Made by a program: the position numbers and the translations under genes
Source: Chitinophagaceae bacterium
GTDB lineage: Bacteria > Bacteroidota > Bacteroidia > Chitinophagales > Chitinophagaceae
Direction: 5' to 3'
Assembly (NCBI GenBank): GCA_024508725.1
Contig: JANINS010000004.1
Location: 948,163 to 1,012,162 of the forward strand
Length of the DNA stretch: 64,000 nt
The notes under the pieces: model-generated
Database searches by the model: none
Told to the model about the DNA's origin: nothing
What the model saw: the letters and a program-made list of their open reading frames with translations, nothing else
Shown: one piece after another, positions 506 through 10,400 of the stretch
How positions within the stretch are numbered: the stretch's first letter is position 1
Layout of the letters: each line of letters opens with the position of its first letter

Positions 506-2020
506 ATGAGATTCAATTTTAAGCGTAAAGCAAAAGAAGTAACCAACTATGAGGGAGCAAAGGCATTCGTTCTAACTCCTGAACTGGAACTATATACCGC
601 AGTTGTAACTGCTGCATTGACTGATAATTTTTACGAGAAAGCTGATGACAGATTGCATCGTATTCGTGAACTCATCAGTAAGAACAATGCACAGTTCGTT
701 GCAAAGCTGGCAGTGTATGCAAGAGAGCAAATGAATCTTCGTTCTGTATCTCTTGTGCTGGCTGTTGAACTGGCAAAGCAACACAATGGTGACAACCTTG
801 TAAGTGCTTTGACTGCAAGAGTAGTACAACGTGCAGATGAGATCACGGAAGTGTTGGCTTTCTATGCACAAAATAACGATCGTAAGCAGGTGAAGCAGTT
901 GAACAAGTTGAGCAAGCAATTGCAAAAAGGTTTGGCTGAGGCTTTCAACCGTTTTGATGAATACCAGTTTGCTAAATACAACCGTGATGCACAGGTAAAG
1001 TTGAAAGATGCTTTGTTCCTGGTGCACCCAAAAGCAAAGGATGAAGCTCAACAAGCTTTGTTCAATAAGATCGTAAAGGATGAATTGCAGGTTCCATACA
1101 CCTGGGAAGTTGAATTGAGTGTGATGGGTCAGCAAAAGTATGATACAGTTGAACTGAAGAAAGAAGCTGTGAAGGCAAAGTGGGAAGAGCTCATCTTCAG
1201 CAACAAACTTGGTTATATGGCCATGCTGCGTAACCTGCGTAACATATTGGAAGCAGATGTTAGCAACGAAGCACTTGATAAGGTATGTGCATATATCGCT
1301 AATGCAAATGCAGTAGCAAAGAGCAGGCAATTGCCTTTCCGTTTTCTGAGTGCGTACCGTGAGCTAAAGAATGTAGATAATGGTCGTGTAAGTAAAGTGT
1401 TGGATGCATTGGAAGATGCAGTACTGCATACCGCAGCCAATATTACAGGTTACGATGCAAACACTAAAGTGGTTATCGCTGCCGACGTAAGTGGTAGCAT
1501 GCAAACTGCAGTGAGTGCAAGAAGTAAAGTGCAGCGTTTTGATATTGGTTTGATGCTGGCAATGTTGCTGCAAAGCAAGTGTGAGCATGTGATCACTGGT
1601 ATGTTCGGTGATACATGGAAGATCATTAACGTGTCAAAGAAGAATATTCTTAGCAATGTGATGGAGTTCCATCGTCGTGAAGGTGAAGTTGGTTATAGTA
1701 CCAACGGTTACCTGGTTATCAAAGACCTTATTCAAAAGAATAAAGTGGTTGATAAGATCATGATGTTCACTGATTGCCAGTTGTGGAACAGTAACGATGC
1801 AAATACTCAGTACGCTGACATTTGGAATCGTTACAAGAAGATCGCACCAAATGCAAAGATGTATTTGTTCGATCTGGCTGGTTACGGTAATACTCCGCTG
1901 AATGTGATAAGAGATGATGTGTACCTGGTAGCTGGCTGGAGCGATAAGATCTTCGATGTGTTGGCAGCGATAGAGAATGGAAGTGATGCTTTGAAGATGA
2001 TCAACGCAATAGAACTGTAG
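506..2020 (+). CDS. rsr: Ro60/Rsr RNA-binding protein (TROVE + vWA)
   Basis: Bacterial Ro60 orthologue, a ring-shaped protein that binds Y RNAs and ends of misfolded or damaged RNA. Residues 1 to about 310 are the helical HEAT-like TROVE domain. About 320-504 is a von Willebrand A domain with an intact MIDAS: DVSGS at 327-331, T399 in GYSTNG and D423 in MFTD. At 504 aa it is slightly shorter than animal Ro60 (about 540). The start is fixed by AAAAGGAGGT 6-15 nt upstream, an unusually strong Shine-Dalgarno for this phylum and unlike its neighbours, which may signal horizontal transfer or high expression. A hairpin (2047-2078) and then the Y/tRNA-like array follow directly, and rtcB lies 3.3 kb downstream. 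In enterobacteria rsr, Y RNAs and rtcBA form a sigma54-controlled repair operon; no sigma54 site was seen here. Confidence 0.93.
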   Translation: MRFNFKRKAKEVTNYEGAKAFVLTPELELYTAVVTAALTDNFYEKADDRLHRIRELISKNNAQFVAKLAVYAREQMNLRSVSLVLAVELAKQHNGDNLVSALTARVVQRADEITEVLAFYAQNNDRKQVKQLNKLSKQLQKGLAEAFNRFDEYQFAKYNRDAQVKLKDALFLVHPKAKDEAQQALFNKIVKDELQVPYTWEVELSVMGQQKYDTVELKKEAVKAKWEELIFSNKLGYMAMLRNLRNILEADVSNEALDKVCAYIANANAVAKSRQLPFRFLSAYRELKNVDNGRVSKVLDALEDAVLHTAANITGYDANTKVVIAADVSGSMQTAVSARSKVQRFDIGLMLAMLLQSKCEHVITGMFGDTWKIINVSKKNILSNVMEFHRREGEVGYSTNGYLVIKDLIQKNKVVDKIMMFTDCQLWNSNDANTQYADIWNRYKKIAPNAKMYLFDLAGYGNTPLNVIRDDVYLVAGWSDKIFDVLAAIENGSDALKMINAIEL

Positions 2021-2078: not shown

Positions 2079-2090
2079 CCTAAAATGAAT

Positions 2091-2159
2091 TAAGGATGTC
2101 GTAGAGATGAGATACTTCGAACCCAGAATGTAAAGGCTCATTTCGTTTGTTTCTCCTTA
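2091..2159 (+). ncRNA. Y-RNA-like element 1 (short module)
   Basis: Outer stem TAAGGA (2091-2096) with TCCTTA (2154-2159). Fixed 5' motif TGTCGTAG at 2097-2104. Inner stem ATGAG (2107-2111) with CTCAT (2137-2141). Then ATACTTCGA at 2112-2120, a 16-nt variable loop and a 3' motif TTCGTTTGTTTC (2142-2153). The layout resembles a Ro60-binding Y stem: two helices around a conserved asymmetric internal loop, with a CUUG/UUUG-type 3' strand. There is no tRNA-like insert. Stem sequences differ between copies but pairing is kept. Confidence 0.75.
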
Positions 2160-2165
2160 TAAATA

Positions 2166-2263
2166 GAAAGGTGTCGTTAGCAAGAGATACTTCGTGGTAA
2201 TTATGGTTCGAATCCATCCACTCTTAAAAGAGTGAGAGAACTCTTGTGACTTGTTATCCTTTC
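2166..2263 (+). ncRNA. Y-RNA-like element 2 with minimal permuted tRNA mimic
   Basis: Outer stem GAAAGG (2166-2171) with CCTTTC (2258-2263). Motif TGTCGTTAG at 2172-2180, inner stem CAAGAG (2181-2186) with CTCTTG (2241-2246), ATACTTCGT at 2187-2195, 3' motif TGACTTGTTAT (2247-2257). The insert has a T arm (ATGG, TTCGAAT loop, CCAT; 2203-2217) followed directly by a 7-bp acceptor-like hairpin, 2219-2225 with 2228-2234. The acceptor 3' strand therefore precedes the 5' strand, as in a circularly permuted tRNA that has lost its D arm. Confidence 0.72.
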
Positions 2264-2268
2264 AATTT

Positions 2269-2344
2269 TAACCTGTAGCCCAACGGAAGAGGCAACAGTC
2301 TTAGACACTGTTTTGTATCGGTTCGAATCCGATCAGGTTAACCA
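2269..2344 (+). tRNA. tRNA-like gene, anticodon TAG (class I fold)
   Basis: A 76-nt canonical cloverleaf with encoded CCA (2342-2344). Acceptor 2269-2275 with 2334-2340, discriminator A2341. D stem 3 bp with GG at 2285-2286. Anticodon arm ACAGT/ACTGT with loop 2300-2306 and TAG at 2302-2304. Variable loop 5 nt. T arm 2317-2333. TAG is a Leu anticodon, but bacterial tRNA-Leu has a long variable arm, absent here, so the charging identity is doubtful. Confidence 0.8.
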
Positions 2345-2463
2345 ATTGAATGATGCCGTAGAACAGTATTACTTCGTAGTTCATTTGGCTGGAACATTCC
2401 ATTCGTGGAAAAGCAACCTGTTCGAATCAGGTCTAGTGACTGTTTGCTTGTTGCTCATTCAAT
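2345..2463 (+). ncRNA. Y-RNA-like element 3 with unpermuted tRNA-like domain (YrlA-like)
   Basis: Outer stem of 9 bp (2345-2353 with 2455-2463). Motif TGCCGTAG at 2354-2361, inner stem AACAGT (2362-2367) with ACTGTT (2439-2444), ATTACTTCG at 2368-2376, 3' motif TGCTTGTTGC (2445-2454). The insert is in normal tRNA order: a D arm GTTC/GAAC (2379-2395, GG in the loop), a TTCCA/TGGAA hairpin with a TTCG tetraloop in place of the anticodon arm (2397-2410), and a T arm ACCTG/CAGGT with TTCGAAT (2416-2432). This matches the known tRNA mimicry of bacterial YrlA Y RNAs. Confidence 0.78.
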
Positions 2464-2468
2464 GTTAT

Positions 2469-2541
2469 ATAGTAGCATTCCGATTGGCCGGATACTCCAC
2501 CTGGACTGGAGAGGCTGCAGGTTCGAATCCTGTCTACTATA
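2469..2541 (+). tRNA. tRNA-like gene, anticodon TGG with C33
   Basis: 73 nt. Acceptor ATAGTAG/CTACTAT (2469-2475 with 2534-2540), discriminator A2541, then CAA rather than CCA. Anticodon stem CTCCA/TGGAG, loop CCTGGAC (2500-2506), anticodon TGG (Pro). The universally conserved U33 is C, and position 8 is C rather than T. T arm GCAGG/CCTGT with TTCGAAT. These changes make normal decoding doubtful. Confidence 0.7.
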
Positions 2542-2545
2542 CAAA

Positions 2546-2613
2546 TAAGGATGTCGTAGAAATGAGATACTTCGACCAGGAAAAATCAAGACTCATTCGC
2601 TTATCACTCCTTA
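2546..2613 (+). ncRNA. Y-RNA-like element 4 (short module)
   Basis: Outer stem TAAGGA (2546-2551) with TCCTTA (2608-2613). TGTCGTAG at 2552-2559, inner stem ATGAG (2562-2566) with CTCAT (2592-2596), ATACTTCGA at 2567-2575, 3' motif TCGCTTATCAC (2597-2607). It is the closest relative of element 1, with the same stems but a different variable loop, so one probably arose from the other by duplication. Confidence 0.75.
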
Positions 2614-2620
2614 CTTAAGC

Positions 2621-2656
2621 GTGTCGTAAATCGTAGCGAAGCAAGATTCACGACAC
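2621..2656 (+). repeat. hairpin containing the Y 5' motif in fully paired form
   Basis: GTGTCGT (2621-2627) pairs with ACGACAC (2650-2656), continued by AATC (2629-2632) with GATT (2645-2648). The left arm repeats the GTGTCGTA motif of the Y elements, but TACTTCG and the 3' motif are absent and the motif is locked in a duplex. It may be a degenerate Y copy, a processing site or a terminator-like structure. Confidence 0.6.
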
Positions 2657-2676
2657 ACCAACAAAACAATAAAAAT

Positions 2677-2742
2677 AGCGTGTCGTAAAACAGTGATACT
2701 TCGAACTGTCACTTCAAAAGCCACTATTTGCTTGTTACCGCT
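2677..2742 (+). ncRNA. Y-RNA-like element 5 (short module)
   Basis: Outer stem AGCG (2677-2680) with CGCT (2739-2742). TGTCGTAA at 2681-2688, inner stem AGTG (2692-2695) with CACT (2722-2725), ATACTTCGA at 2696-2704, 3' motif TTTGCTTGTTAC (2727-2738). A second CACT (2710-2713) could pair competitively with the inner strand, so two folds are possible. No tRNA-like insert. Confidence 0.72.
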
Positions 2743-2749
2743 TTCGCAT

Positions 2750-2822
2750 TGGTTCGTAGCTCAACTGGCAGAGTACTCGGCTTTTAACCGAGGGGCTGTG
2801 AGTTCAAATCTCACCGGACCAA
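2750..2822 (+). tRNA. tRNA-Lys-like gene, anticodon TTT
   Basis: 73 nt. Acceptor TGGTTCG/CGGACCA (2750-2756 with 2815-2821, one T-G pair), discriminator A2822 followed by CAA. D arm GCTC/GAGT with GG. Anticodon arm CTCGG/CCGAG, loop CTTTTAA, TTT at 2783-2785. T arm GTGAG/CTCAC with TTCAAAT. It is well formed, but the first pair is T-A where bacterial tRNA-Lys normally has G-C, and CCA is not encoded. Confidence 0.82.
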
Positions 2823-2828
2823 CAACGA

Positions 2829-2899
2829 TGTTGAGTAGTGTAATGGTAACATACCAGTCTTTGACACTGGTGTTGATGGTTCAAGTCCATCCTCAACAA
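2829..2899 (+). tRNA. tRNA-Gln-like gene, anticodon TTG
   Basis: 71 nt. Acceptor TGTTGAG/CTCAACA (2829-2835 with 2892-2898); T1-A72 is usual for tRNA-Gln. Discriminator A2899, then CAA. D stem GTGT/ACAT, anticodon arm CCAGT/ACTGG with loop CTTTGAC (TTG at 2861-2863), T arm GATGG/CCATC with TTCAAGT. A complete cloverleaf. Confidence 0.82.
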
Positions 2900-2904
2900 C
2901 AAAT

Positions 2905-2976
2905 GGTGGTATTAGCTTATTGGTAAAGCGTCCGTCTGTGAAACGGAAGAACAGGGTTCAATTCCCGATACTCACC
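2905..2976 (+). tRNA. tRNA-His-like gene, anticodon GTG, bulged acceptor
   Basis: Eight acceptor pairs, including the extra G-1:C73 pair typical of tRNA-His, form only if T2972 is bulged out (2905-2912 with 2969-2976). D arm GCTT/AAGC with GG. Anticodon arm TCCGT/ACGGA, GTG at 2938-2940. The T stem has only 3 good pairs (GGG/CCC, 2954-2956 with 2964-2966). A degenerate but recognisable tRNA-His fold with no encoded CCA. Confidence 0.72.
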
Positions 2977-2980
2977 CGAT

Positions 2981-3124
2981 ACAGGTGTCGTAGGTAAAAG
3001 ATACTTCGACTCATAATCGGCAGGTCGCTGGTTCGAATCCAGCCGGGTCCACTTACTAATAAATGCATTGGACCTGTAGCTCAGATGGTAGAGCAGCTAG
3101 TGCTTTTATCGCCCATCACCCTGT
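2981..3124 (+). ncRNA. Y-RNA-like element 6 with embedded, circularly permuted tRNA-Met
   Basis: Outer stem ACAGG (2981-2985) with CCTGT (3120-3124). TGTCGTAG at 2986-2993, inner stem TAAAAG (2995-3000) with CTTTTA (3103-3108), ATACTTCGA at 3001-3009, 3' motif TCGCCCATCAC (3109-3119). The insert is an elongator tRNA-Met-like sequence in permuted order. First comes the 3' half: anticodon loop CTCATAA 3010-3016, variable loop 3022-3026, T arm GCTGG/CCAGC 3027-3043, acceptor 3' strand 3044-3050, A73 at 3051. Then a 18-nt linker (3052-3069), then the 5' half: acceptor 5' strand 3070-3076, T8A9, D arm GCTC/GAGC 3079-3094 and GCTAG. All 7 acceptor pairs and 5 T-stem pairs form. The Y stem occupies the place of the anticodon stem junction. 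Confidence 0.8.
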
Positions 3125-3130
3125 ACACTT

Positions 3131-3203
3131 TGGCTTATAGTTTAATGGATCAAAACATTGCACTACGAATGCAGAAATAGAAGTTCGACTCTTCTTAAGC
3201 CAA
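3131..3203 (+). tRNA. tRNA-Arg-like gene, anticodon ACG
   Basis: 73 nt. Acceptor TGGCTTA/TAAGCCA (3131-3137 with 3196-3202), discriminator A3203, then CAA. D stem GTTT/AAAC. Anticodon arm TTGCA/TGCAG with loop CTACGAA, ACG at 3165-3167 (the A34 that TadA converts to inosine in bacterial tRNA-Arg). T arm AGAAG/CTTCT with TTCGACT. Complete cloverleaf, without CCA. Confidence 0.8.
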
Positions 3204-3205
3204 CA

Positions 3206-3337
3206 ACAGGTGTCGTAGAAAAGAGATACTTCGTGGGTCACAAGTTCGAATCTTGTTTCCTGTATATCAGGAATAGCTCAGTTGGTTAGAGCAACAGCCT
3301 TGCAAGCTTATGTTCTTTTTTCGACTTATTACCCTGT
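3206..3337 (+). ncRNA. Y-RNA-like element 7 with embedded, circularly permuted tRNA (TGC)
   Basis: Outer stem ACAGG (3206-3210) with CCTGT (3333-3337). TGTCGTAG at 3211-3218, inner stem AAAAGAG (3219-3225) with TTCTTTT (3313-3319), ATACTTCGT at 3226-3234, 3' motif TTCGACTTATTAC (3320-3332). Insert order: T arm ACAAG/CTTGT (3240-3256), acceptor 3' strand TTCCTG (3257-3262), 5-nt loop, acceptor 5' strand CAGGAA (3268-3273), T8A9, D arm GCTC/GAGC (3276-3292), then a complete anticodon loop CTTGCAA (3299-3305; TGC). The breakpoint is 3' of the anticodon loop, unlike element 6 where it is 5' of it. Confidence 0.78.
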
Positions 3338-3340
3338 AAC

Positions 3341-3412
3341 GGATGAATAGCTCAATGGCAGAGCTGCGGCTTGTTAAGCCGAGGGTTGAAAGTTCGAATC
3401 TTTCTTCATCCG
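3341..3412 (+). tRNA. tRNA-Asn-like gene, anticodon GTT
   Basis: 72 nt. Acceptor GGATGAA/TTCATCC (3341-3347 with 3405-3411), discriminator G3412 as in bacterial tRNA-Asn, then CAA. T8A9, D arm GCTC/GAGC, anticodon loop TTGTTAA (GTT at 3373-3375) on a stem with one G-A mismatch, T arm GAAAG/CTTTC with TTCGAAT. One of the most regular members of the array. Confidence 0.85.
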
Positions 3413-3418
3413 CAAATT

Positions 3419-3492
3419 GTCGTGCTGGCAGATGTGGCTGTATGCACTCGACTGCAAATCGAGAGAAAGAAGTTCGAGTCTTCTGCACGACT
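3419..3492 (+). tRNA. tRNA-Cys-like gene, anticodon GCA
   Basis: 74 nt. Acceptor GTCGTGC/GCACGAC (3419-3425 with 3485-3491), discriminator T3492 as required for tRNA-Cys, then CAA. D stem reduced to GCA/TGC with a large loop, anticodon arm CTCGA/TCGAG with loop CTGCAAA, T arm AGAAG/CTTCT with TTCGAGT. Identity elements fit tRNA-Cys. Confidence 0.84.
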
Positions 3493-3497
3493 CAAAT

Positions 3498-3575
3498 GGT
3501 GCTTTGGCAGAGAGGATTTATATGCACCGGCTTGAAACACCGGACAGCCAGGTTCGATTCCTGGAGGCACCACCA
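3498..3575 (+). tRNA. tRNA-like gene with 9-nt anticodon loop (TGA/GAA ambiguous)
   Basis: 78 nt including encoded CCA (3573-3575). Acceptor GGTGCTT/AGGCACC, discriminator A3572. D stem GCA/TGC with a 13-nt loop. The anticodon helix is only CCGG/CCGG (3527-3530 with 3540-3543), leaving a 9-nt loop, CTTGAAACA. Counting from U33 gives TGA (Ser) but there is no class II variable arm; GAA (Phe) is the alternative. T arm CCAGG/CCTGG is perfect. A normal decoding role is doubtful. Confidence 0.7.
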
Positions 3576-3615
3576 TATAATTTTTAATAAATGAAAATGA
3601 CAATAAATCAAAACC

Positions 3616-5372: not shown

Positions 5373-6836
5373 ATGGCAAAGAAATTATCAATACGTGGCA
5401 AAGACATCAGGGGAATTGGTTATCCCGAAGGACCTGTAGTGTCTGTAGCCATTAATACAATGGAAAAACATTTCAAGCATGAAACGCTTGCAAGTGCATT
5501 ACACTTATTGAAACAAGTGCTGAATGATCCTGCAACATTTGCAGAAGATGAGATATTAGGAAATATTGCAAAGCTGCTGAGACCAAAAGCTACAGACACT
5601 GCAGAAAGCATTGGTGAAGTATCGTTAAATAAAGAAGGTGTGCATTTCAATGTGTTTGGTCGTGAGCATATCGAAGAAGGCGCCATGCACCAGATGTACC
5701 AGGCCGCCAAACTTCCGATAAGTGTTGCCGGAGCTTTAATGCCGGATGCTCATCATGGTTATGGTTTACCGATTGGTGGAGTGCTGGCAACGGAGAATGC
5801 AATTATTCCGTATGGTGTTGGAGTGGATATTGGTTGCAGAATGTGCCTTTCTATCTTCGACATCGATCCGAAAGATCTTGTTCAACGTGAAGCTTACTTT
5901 ACAAGAGAATTGAACGAAGCAACATTGTTTGGCGGAGGAAAGGAATTCAAAACCACCACCGATCATGAGGTGCTGGACAATGAACTTTTCTATCGTTTGC
6001 CTTTATTAAAAGGTTTACACGGAAGGGCTGCAAAGCAATTGGGATCTTCAGGATCCGGTAATCACTTCGTGGAGTTTGGTACAGTAGAGATCACTGAGAA
6101 AGATGCAGTATTAGGTGTTGAACCTGGAAAATATCTTGGACTGTTATCGCATAGCGGATCAAGAGCTTTAGGTGCAAACATTGCCCAGCACTATACTAAA
6201 CTTGCAAAGGCAAAAAGAAAATTGCCTGGTGAAGCTTCTAATATTGCGTGGTTCTTATTGAACGAAGAAGAAGGTTGGGAGTATTGGTTGAGCATGAACC
6301 TGGCCGGTGATTATGCTTCTGCCTGTCATCATGTGATTCATGCTAAAATTGCTAAGCAGTTAGGAAGGATGCCTATGAAGATGGTAGAGAACCATCACAA
6401 TTTCGCATGGAAAGAAATGCATGATGGAAAAGAAGTGATCGTTCATCGTAAAGGTGCAACACCTGCAGGTAAAGATGTGCTTGGAATTATTCCGGGAAGC
6501 ATGACTGCCCCGGGTTTTATTGTAAAAGGTAAAGGAGAAACGGCTTCTATTAACTCTGCATCGCATGGTGCAGGCAGACAAATGAGCCGTACCCAAGCAT
6601 TGAGCAATATTACCCACAACGCATTGAAGAATGAGCTGGCGAAACATGGTGTAACTTTATTAGGTGGAGGATTAGATGAAGCTCCTTTTGCTTATAAGAA
6701 CATTCATGATGTGATGAATGCACAACAACATTTGGTTGACACTGTTGGGTTATTCTATCCTAAGATCGTTAAGATGGATGGCGGAACACCTAAGCAATGG
6801 AAGAATAAGAAAGGGGAAGATCTTTTAGGAGAGTAA
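5373..6836 (+). CDS. rtcB: RtcB RNA-splicing/repair ligase
   Basis: 487 aa, a full-length RtcB close in size to archaeal enzymes. It joins 2',3'-cyclic phosphate or 3'-phosphate ends to 5'-OH ends using GTP and Mn2+. Visible signatures: GVDIGCRM with the metal-binding cysteine at 155, the SGSGNHFVEFG metal/histidine segment, LSHSGSRALG, VENHHNFAW, and NSASHGAGRQMSRTQA, whose His398 matches the guanylylated histidine. The start is at an A-rich leader without Shine-Dalgarno. It is the last gene of the rsr/array/DUF458/AAA series and the most direct evidence that the locus handles cleaved RNA. No archease or RtcA is present in the window. Confidence 0.96.
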   Translation: MAKKLSIRGKDIRGIGYPEGPVVSVAINTMEKHFKHETLASALHLLKQVLNDPATFAEDEILGNIAKLLRPKATDTAESIGEVSLNKEGVHFNVFGREHIEEGAMHQMYQAAKLPISVAGALMPDAHHGYGLPIGGVLATENAIIPYGVGVDIGCRMCLSIFDIDPKDLVQREAYFTRELNEATLFGGGKEFKTTTDHEVLDNELFYRLPLLKGLHGRAAKQLGSSGSGNHFVEFGTVEITEKDAVLGVEPGKYLGLLSHSGSRALGANIAQHYTKLAKAKRKLPGEASNIAWFLLNEEEGWEYWLSMNLAGDYASACHHVIHAKIAKQLGRMPMKMVENHHNFAWKEMHDGKEVIVHRKGATPAGKDVLGIIPGSMTAPGFIVKGKGETASINSASHGAGRQMSRTQALSNITHNALKNELAKHGVTLLGGGLDEAPFAYKNIHDVMNAQQHLVDTVGLFYPKIVKMDGGTPKQWKNKKGEDLLGE

Positions 6837-9842: not shown

Positions 9843-10400
9843 ATGGAGAATTTCGATCCGAAGAAAGCCAAAGCCATCAGCAAATATTTAAGCTACATCC
9901 TAAGGCATGATCCGGATGATGTAGGGATCATCCTTGATAAGAATGGCTGGACAAATACCCACACGCTTATTCAGCAGGTTAAACTAAGATTCCCGGCACT
10001 GGATAAAACCATTTTGGAATACATCGTTGCAACCAACAACAAACAACGTTTCATTTTTAGTGATGACAAAAGCCTGATCAGGGCAAACCAGGGCCATTCG
10101 ATCGATGTGGAATTAAACCTTCTGGAACAGGAACCACCAACAGTTCTATTTCATGGTACCACTATCGGAAATATTAATTCCATCATGCAGGAAGGATTGA
10201 AAAAGCAAAGCAGGCATCATGTACACCTTAGCGAAAATGTAACCACTGCATTACAGGTAGGCAGCAGGCATGGACGAGTGTCGATTCTTAAAATACATTC
10301 GGGTAAGATGTATGCAGATGGTTATACATTCTATATCTCTGCCAATCATGTTTGGTTAACAGATCATGTACCACTGGCATATATTGAAGATAACTTTTAA
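9843..10400 (+). CDS. kptA: KptA/Tpt1 RNA 2'-phosphotransferase
   Basis: 185 aa, normal family length. It transfers an internal RNA 2'-phosphate to NAD+, releasing ADP-ribose 1'',2''-cyclic phosphate. Visible family features: SKYLSYILRHDPDDVGI at 14-30 with the catalytic Arg-His pair, GWTNTHTLIQ, KQRFIF, LFHGTT with the NAD-binding His, HVHLSENVTTALQVGSRHGR and the C-terminal VWLTDHVPLAYIE. In fungi it erases the 2'-phosphate left by Trl1-type ligation; RtcB leaves no such mark, so the bacterial substrate is open. Its position 3 kb from rtcB and rsr adds a fourth RNA-repair function to this region. Confidence 0.93.
   Translation: MENFDPKKAKAISKYLSYILRHDPDDVGIILDKNGWTNTHTLIQQVKLRFPALDKTILEYIVATNNKQRFIFSDDKSLIRANQGHSIDVELNLLEQEPPTVLFHGTTIGNINSIMQEGLKKQSRHHVHLSENVTTALQVGSRHGRVSILKIHSGKMYADGYTFYISANHVWLTDHVPLAYIEDNF

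What the first reader, a model, noticed from the sequence alone, without database searches (positions are those of the whole stretch)
3206..3337. Second permuted tRNA module with a different breakpoint (element 7)
Seen: T arm, acceptor 3' strand, a 5-nt loop, acceptor 5' strand, D arm and a complete TGC anticodon loop, inside the same Y frame. The break lies 3' of the anticodon loop, whereas element 6 breaks 5' of it. Two independent permutations in adjacent elements suggest that presentation of the T/D elbow and acceptor is selected, not descent from one rearrangement.
Basis: partly seen in the sequence, partly recalled or inferred. Interest (0 to 1): 0.82.

Follow-up and report, generated by a model that had tools for sequence, protein, structure and literature searches.

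The report
Y RNA carrying a rearranged tRNA
This is a Y RNA, the small RNA partner of the Ro60 protein, that displays a nearly complete transfer RNA in rotated order; that rotated order is normal for bacterial Y RNAs, but keeping a whole anticodon arm, and joining it on the opposite strand from its neighbour, is an unusual variant.

Summary
3206-3337 is a Y-RNA frame that contains a T arm, an acceptor hairpin with a 5-nt loop, a D arm and an intact UGC anticodon loop, in permuted order. It fills the gap between tRNA-Arg and tRNA-Asn, downstream of a Ro60 gene. Permutation itself is not new: it is the published topology of YrlA Y RNAs, and element 7 matches Rfam YrlA (RF02553) end to end (40.8 bits, E 9e-8, below the gathering score). 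I collected 197 such modules (93 of 120 Ro60 loci in Bacteroidota). Two anticodon-stem pairs (27:43, 28:42), not used to select modules, both pair in 152 of 189 (29 expected). So the Y stem is inserted into the anticodon stem of an otherwise complete tRNA. In 60 modules, element 6 included, it enters between positions 28 and 29; in element 7 between 41 and 42: same helix level, opposite strand. Closing either junction restores a perfect 5-bp anticodon stem. The element-7 type is rare (also two Pontibacter loci). Its anticodon loop is not kept in four syntenic homologues; elbow and acceptor are. Best reading: a YrlA variant displaying a tRNA elbow on Ro60. Decoding or maturation to tRNA is unlikely.

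The parts
3206..3337 (+). Element 7: whole Y RNA with permuted tRNA module (YrlA type)
   Evidence: RF02553 40.8 bits, model 1-114/114
3206..3210 (+). 5' arm of terminal stem (ACAGG), pairs with 3333-3337 (CCTGT)
   Evidence: other elements of the window use other paired letters (AAGGA/TCCTT, AAAGG/CCTTT, GAATGA/TCATTC, AGCG/CGCT)
3211..3233 (+). Y-frame 5' strand, conserved TGTCGTAG...GATACTTCG; last G acts as tRNA position 42
   Evidence: motif downstream of Ro60 in 115 of 120 loci
3234..3239 (+). tRNA position 43 (T) and variable loop 44-48 (GGGTC)
   Evidence: register
3240..3256 (+). T arm ACAAG-TTCGAAT-CTTGT
3257..3273 (+). acceptor hairpin TTCCTG-TATAT-CAGGAA (3' strand, 5-nt loop, 5' strand; 6 bp, no CCA)
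3276..3292 (+). D arm GCTC-AGTTGGTTA-GAGC
3294..3308 (+). anticodon arm, positions 27-41: ACAGC-CTTGCAA-GCT, anticodon TGC at 3301-3303; break is between 41 and 42
3309..3337 (+). Y-frame 3' strand, including CTTTTTTCGAC and TTATTACCCTGT
2981..3124 (+). Element 6: paralogous Y frame with module broken at 28/29, anticodon loop CTCATAA (CAT), 7-bp acceptor plus one more pair, 17-nt loop
   Evidence: RF02553 38.8 bits
3131..3204 (+). tRNA-Arg(ACG) abutting element 7 upstream
3341..3413 (+). tRNA-Asn(GTT) abutting element 7 downstream
2090..2748 (+). Y elements 1-5 of the same array (with tRNA-Leu and tRNA-Pro between them)
506..2020 (+). Ro60/Rsr (TROVE + vWA), presumed protein partner
   Evidence: PF05731 1.7e-29, PF25045 2.3e-8
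5373..6836 (+). RtcB RNA ligase of the same neighbourhood
   Evidence: PF01139 4.2e-80

Best explanation
Element 7 is a YrlA-type Y RNA. Its ends form the stem that should bind Ro60. Its loop end is a near-complete tRNA whose own 5' and 3' ends are closed by a 5-nt loop and whose anticodon stem is opened on the 3' strand (41/42) to take the Y stem. The folded T/D elbow and acceptor hairpin are displayed on the Ro60 ring to recruit or regulate a tRNA-recognising partner (a tRNA-modifying enzyme, or a nuclease such as PNPase). The RNA is probably cut out of a long array transcript when the flanking tRNAs are processed. The anticodon arm is a retained or captured piece of tRNA that is tolerated on either strand; it is not used for decoding. 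Shown by sequence: frame, module, break sites, covariation, locus context. Inferred: Ro60 binding, partner recruitment, processing.
For: RF02553 match over the full model for elements 6 and 7 and matches in relatives L042, L045, L069, L137 and L139. Ro60 gene directly upstream. Y motif near 115 of 120 Ro60 genes, and 197 permuted modules in 93 loci. Pairs 27:43 and 28:42, not used to select modules, both pair in 152 of 189 against 29 +- 5, with many pair types. Full 5-bp anticodon stem across the 28/29 break in 60 modules against 9.6 with swapped tails. Element 7 closes to a perfect 5-bp stem at 41/42. Element 7 fills the gap between tRNA-Arg and tRNA-Asn. Literature: bacterial Y RNA 6CU1 is circularly permuted relative to tRNA (PMC11472068); YrlA has D, T and acceptor arms, is modified by DusA and TruB, and tethers Rsr (PMC8394870).
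Against: The RF02553 scores are below the curated gathering score (40.8 against 69). No expression, Ro60-binding or partner data exist. The fold z-score is only -1.5. The known function (Rsr with PNPase) was shown in Deinococcus, not in Bacteroidota.
Confidence: 0.8

Rival explanations
1. Elements 6 and 7 are circularly permuted tRNA genes: RtcB (same locus) joins 28 to 29, or 41 to 42, and RNase P and RNase Z open the acceptor loop, giving working tRNAs.
For: Closing the breaks gives perfect 5-bp anticodon stems. Un-permuted E6 is 85% identical to a linear tRNA CAT. Nine modules have CCA right after the acceptor stem. RtcB is encoded 2 kb downstream. Permuted tRNA genes exist in algae and one archaeon (PMC3978253).
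Against: Element 7 has a 6-bp acceptor closed by a 5-nt loop without CCA; 60 modules have 4-nt acceptor loops, 45 of them GNRA-type, leaving no room for a tRNA 3' end. Positions 29-31 are mostly the Y frame's own letters. This genome has normal linear tRNAs for Ala(TGC) and CAT. Modules of the 28/29 type are not commoner near RtcB (p 0.40).
Confidence: 0.04
2. The module is a bait or sensor: its anticodon loop is cut by anticodon nucleases in place of, or together with, real tRNAs, and the cut RNA on Ro60 changes activity or is resealed by RtcB.
For: 28/29-type modules keep loop signatures: U33 in 58 of 66 and R37 in 59 of 66 unique loops, 32 different anticodons. Arrays of spare tRNAs sit in the same loci, more often with RtcB (8 of 12 against 27 of 89, p 0.02). 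The Salmonella operon responds to tRNA cleavage (PMC7790460), whose authors suggest the YrlA tRNA-like domain could act as a competitive inhibitor of the nuclease.
Against: Many modules lack an anticodon loop; the element-7 loop is not kept in syntenic relatives. Salmonella YrlA was not cut under conditions that cut tRNAs (PMC7790460). No link of 28/29-type modules with RtcB.
Confidence: 0.13
3. Element 7 is a decaying tRNA pseudogene pair: the 3' half of one tRNA followed by the 5' half of the next in a tandem array, with no RNA function.
For: It lies in a tRNA array. The order 3' half - spacer - 5' half is what a tandem tRNA pair would give. Modules are usually closer to a linear tRNA than to a sibling module (114 of 148).
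Against: The acceptor 3' and 5' strands pair across the spacer, the Y frame pairs around the module, and pairs 27:43 and 28:42 covary across relatives. This describes the likely origin, not decay.
Confidence: 0.02
4. The UGC anticodon loop of element 7 is a chance hairpin in an ordinary YrlA linker.
For: Patterns with U33, R37 and three pairs occur three times in 189 tails, 1.5 expected by shuffling.
Against: Element 7 is the best tRNA match of 197 tails (13 of 16 bases, 0.04% of shuffles). It closes to a perfect 5-bp stem with G42-U43. Two Pontibacter modules of the same design rank next for positions 29-41, with a CTGCAAA or TTGCAAA loop.
Confidence: 0.1

Closest known systems
YrlA, bacterial Y RNA-like A (Rfam RF02553; PDB 6CU1)
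   Same: Encoded beside Ro60/Rsr; end-paired stem; T arm, closed acceptor hairpin and D arm in that order; circularly permuted relative to tRNA (PMC11472068); full-length match to the model
   Different: Score below gathering; carries a complete anticodon arm with UGC loop that the YrlA model lacks; Y stem enters at 41/42; embedded between tRNA genes in a seven-Y-RNA, nine-tRNA array
Circularly permuted tRNA genes of algae and one archaeon (PMC3978253)
   Same: 3' half before 5' half; break can lie in the anticodon region; an RNA ligase of the tRNA-splicing kind nearby (RtcB)
   Different: No bulge-helix-bulge seen at the break; acceptor closed by a 5-nt loop without CCA; held in a Ro60-type frame; ordinary linear tRNAs exist for the same anticodons
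rsr-yrlBA-rtcBA RNA repair operon of Salmonella (PMC7790460)
   Same: Ro60, Y RNAs and RtcB together
   Different: No RtcA noticed in the stretch examined; many more Y RNAs; tRNA genes interspersed; RNaseH-like and AAA genes between
Permuted tmRNA (Rfam RF04321)
   Same: tRNA-like domain in permuted order
   Different: Only weak partial matches at 3027-3078 and 3516-3600 (E 0.4 and 5), not in element 7

Membership tests
YrlA / bacterial Y RNA | Encoded next to a Ro60/Rsr gene | tested here: met
   TROVE + vWA protein 506-2020; same in relatives
YrlA / bacterial Y RNA | Stem formed by the two ends, with conserved Ro60-site letters | tested here: met
   ACAGG/CCTGT stem and TGTCGTAG...ACTTCG motif shared with other elements and 115 of 120 loci; that these letters bind Ro60 is inferred
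YrlA / bacterial Y RNA | Module with T, acceptor and D arms in permuted order | tested here: met
YrlA / bacterial Y RNA | Match to RF02553 above the curated gathering score | tested here: not met
   40.8 bits against 69, though full length and E 8.7e-8; relatives at 36-52 bits. A scoring convention, not a biological defining feature
YrlA / bacterial Y RNA | Binds Ro60/Rsr | not testable with these tools
   needs pull-down
YrlA / bacterial Y RNA | Carries tRNA-type modified bases | not testable with these tools
   needs RNA
Circularly permuted tRNA gene | Halves swapped, giving a good cloverleaf when rejoined | tested here: met
   rejoined at 41/42 ARAGORN calls tRNA-Ala(TGC), but ARAGORN also calls over a third of swapped controls, so weak; perfect 5-bp anticodon stem
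Circularly permuted tRNA gene | 7-bp acceptor that can yield a free 3' CCA end | tested here: not met
   6 bp, 5-nt loop TATAT, no CCA
Circularly permuted tRNA gene | Mature tRNA is produced | not testable with these tools
   needs tRNA sequencing

The most novel reading that the evidence does not exclude
Bacteroidota Ro60 loci hold a set of full-tRNA mimics, each with a real anticodon arm grafted on the Ro60 RNA at one helix level from either strand, that act as baits or sensors for anticodon-cutting nucleases, backed by spare tRNA genes and RtcB in the same array.
Probability: 0.12. Interest if true: 0.85.

Novelty: new variant of a known kind. Interest (0 to 1): 0.5.

Why it matters
YrlA is described as mimicking the D, T and acceptor arms of tRNA. 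Here the mimic extends to all four arms in many Bacteroidota, with tens of different anticodons and two mirror-image attachment points at the same helix level. That makes a concrete question testable: does the Ro60 partner, or a nuclease, read the anticodon arm? It also links Y RNAs to tRNA arrays, from which the modules were apparently captured repeatedly.

Tried and rejected
Folding energy as proof: z only -1.5, so not used. ARAGORN on rejoined modules: 149 of 194 called for the 28/29 join, but 110-119 also called with swapped tails, and 127 against 74-83 for 41/42, so not used as evidence. The Rfam tRNA hit 2984-3051 (34 bits): rejected as a real linear tRNA; it reads the Y 5' strand of element 6 as a false 5' half. 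Covariation of T, D and acceptor pairs: not counted, because pairing in those arms was a selection rule for modules; only 27:43 and 28:42 and the anticodon stem are unbiased. A same-genus genome (G068) has no Ro60 and gives no orthologue. The first extraction script missed modules through a wrong motif and was replaced. The key papers on YrlA (Chen 2014; Wang 2018; Sim and Wolin 2018) are not held; their content is taken from papers that cite them.

Full report
Locus. The window is part of a 3.88-Mb genome whose nearest Ro60 relatives are in Bacteroidota, many of them Chitinophagaceae-type records. Downstream of a Ro60/Rsr gene (506-2020; TROVE and Ro60 vWA domains) lies an array of nine tRNA genes and seven Y-like elements (2090-3337), followed by an RNaseH-like ORF, an AAA ATPase and RtcB.

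Observation. Element 7 runs from ACAGG (3206-3210) to CCTGT (3333-3337), with the Y motif TGTCGTAG...GATACTTCG at 3211-3233. Inside are, in order, the variable loop (GGGTC), T arm, acceptor 3' strand, TATAT, acceptor 5' strand, D arm and ACAGC-CTTGCAA-GCT, an anticodon arm with a UGC loop. Minimum-energy folding of 3203-3340 shows the Y stem, T arm, acceptor hairpin and D arm. The energy alone is not remarkable (z -1.5). Element 7 fills the gap between tRNA-Arg (ends 3204) and tRNA-Asn (starts 3341), which suggests release by tRNA processing (inference).

Identity. Rfam's YrlA model (RF02553) matches element 7 over its whole length (3219-3322, 40.8 bits, E 8.7e-8) and element 6 likewise (38.8 bits), both below the gathering score of 69. 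YrlA is a Ro60-bound Y RNA whose module resembles the D, T and acceptor arms of tRNA (PMC8394870), and the solved structure 6CU1 superposes on tRNA with a circular permutation (PMC11472068). The permuted order is therefore the expected topology of the family.

Comparison. I collected Ro60 loci from the same family and order and from GTDB genomes. Of 120 loci (about a dozen are the same place drawn twice), 115 carry the Y motif within 4.5 kb downstream of Ro60, and 93 carry 197 distinct permuted modules. A further 20 loci at class and phylum level raise this to 214 modules. Several arrays mix Y RNAs with 3-15 tRNA genes.

Where the Y stem enters. With tRNA numbering, the lowest two anticodon-stem pairs were not used to find modules, yet both pair in 152 of 189 against 29 +- 5 when partners are shuffled; single pairs are 148 of 177 each against 65-68 in a non-redundant set, with G-C, C-G, A-U and U-A pairs all present. 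So the Y stem is grafted into the anticodon stem. In 60 modules, element 6 among them, the full 5-bp stem forms when 28 is joined to 29 (9.6 expected with swapped tails). In many of these the top three pairs use the Y frame's own CGA. Loops of the 28/29 type look like anticodon loops: U33 in 58 of 66 and purine 37 in 59 of 66 unique cases, with 32 different anticodons. Element 7 is the mirror image. Its anticodon arm hangs on the D side and the join is 41/42, again giving a perfect 5-bp stem, ACAGC-CTTGCAA-GCTGT. Both breaks are at the same base-pair step. Element 7's arm is the best tRNA match of 197 tails (13 of 16 bases, 0.04% of shuffles). For positions 29-41 the next two are Pontibacter elements of the same design (L137, L139), which also match RF02553 (52.1 and 47.3 bits). 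One more locus, L184, has a short head and a different D-side hairpin.

Descent. Un-permuted, E6 is 85% identical to a linear tRNA CAT (L057) and 78% to one of this genome. E7 is 74% identical to this genome's tRNA-Gly(TCC) and 71% to tRNA-Ala(TGC). The two are 58% identical to each other, against a background of 50%. Across all loci 114 of 148 modules are at least as close to some linear tRNA as to a sibling module. This fits repeated capture of tRNA sequence into Y frames, although about 70 positions cannot give a firm tree. The frames of elements 6 and 7, by contrast, are near-identical paralogues.

Conservation of the anticodon. In the four syntenic modules that I read by eye (just before tRNA-Asn in L044, L045, L048, L049), T arm, acceptor hairpin and D arm persist, but not the UGC hairpin.

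Mechanism. Most likely a Ro60-bound RNA that displays a tRNA elbow to a tRNA-recognising partner. Ro60 binding and the partner are inferred from the family. Maturation to tRNA is unlikely: element 7 has a 6-bp acceptor, a 5-nt loop and no CCA; 60 modules have 4-nt acceptor loops (45 GNRA-type); and 28/29-type modules are not commoner near RtcB (p 0.40). A bait or sensor role for the anticodon arm remains open: tRNA arrays are commoner near RtcB (8 of 12 against 27 of 89, p 0.02), and PMC7790460 proposes competitive inhibition of an anticodon nuclease by the YrlA tRNA-like domain, although Salmonella YrlA itself was not cut.

Limits. Module detection required pairing in the T, D and acceptor arms, so those pairs are not counted as evidence. 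Related species are not independent samples, so the shuffling figures overstate significance. The primary YrlA papers were not available.

Noticed in passing
window 2626-2660: A near-perfect hairpin GTGTCGTAAATC...GATTCACGACAC between elements 4 and 5 carries the Y 5' motif but no ACTTCG; perhaps a relic or half of a Y frame.
   Followed up: no
window 2269-3575: All nine array tRNAs repeat anticodons that the chromosome already encodes elsewhere, with divergent sequences: a second, possibly stress-specific tRNA set.
   Followed up: partly
L044-L049, L062, L065, L068-L070, L095: tRNA arrays of 5-15 genes interspersed with Y RNAs directly after Ro60 in other Bacteroidota (one exception, L046, has a single tRNA call), more often near RtcB.
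   Followed up: partly
L193, L198, L202, L204, L205 (viral contigs): Ro60 relatives beside large tRNA arrays in viral contigs; Ro60 relatives also occur in many phage records (93).
   Followed up: no
window 9843-10400: Tpt1/KptA RNA 2'-phosphotransferase gene 3 kb beyond RtcB.
   Followed up: no
L042:5286, L068:5924 (Ro60-sense coordinates): Two modules with a full 7-bp acceptor followed by ACCA before the loop, the closest to a true permuted pre-tRNA.
   Followed up: partly
window 2168-2265 and 2345-2464: Elements 2 and 3 hold other tRNA pieces in Y frames: a T arm plus hairpin without D arm, and a T arm with an extra hairpin.
   Followed up: no
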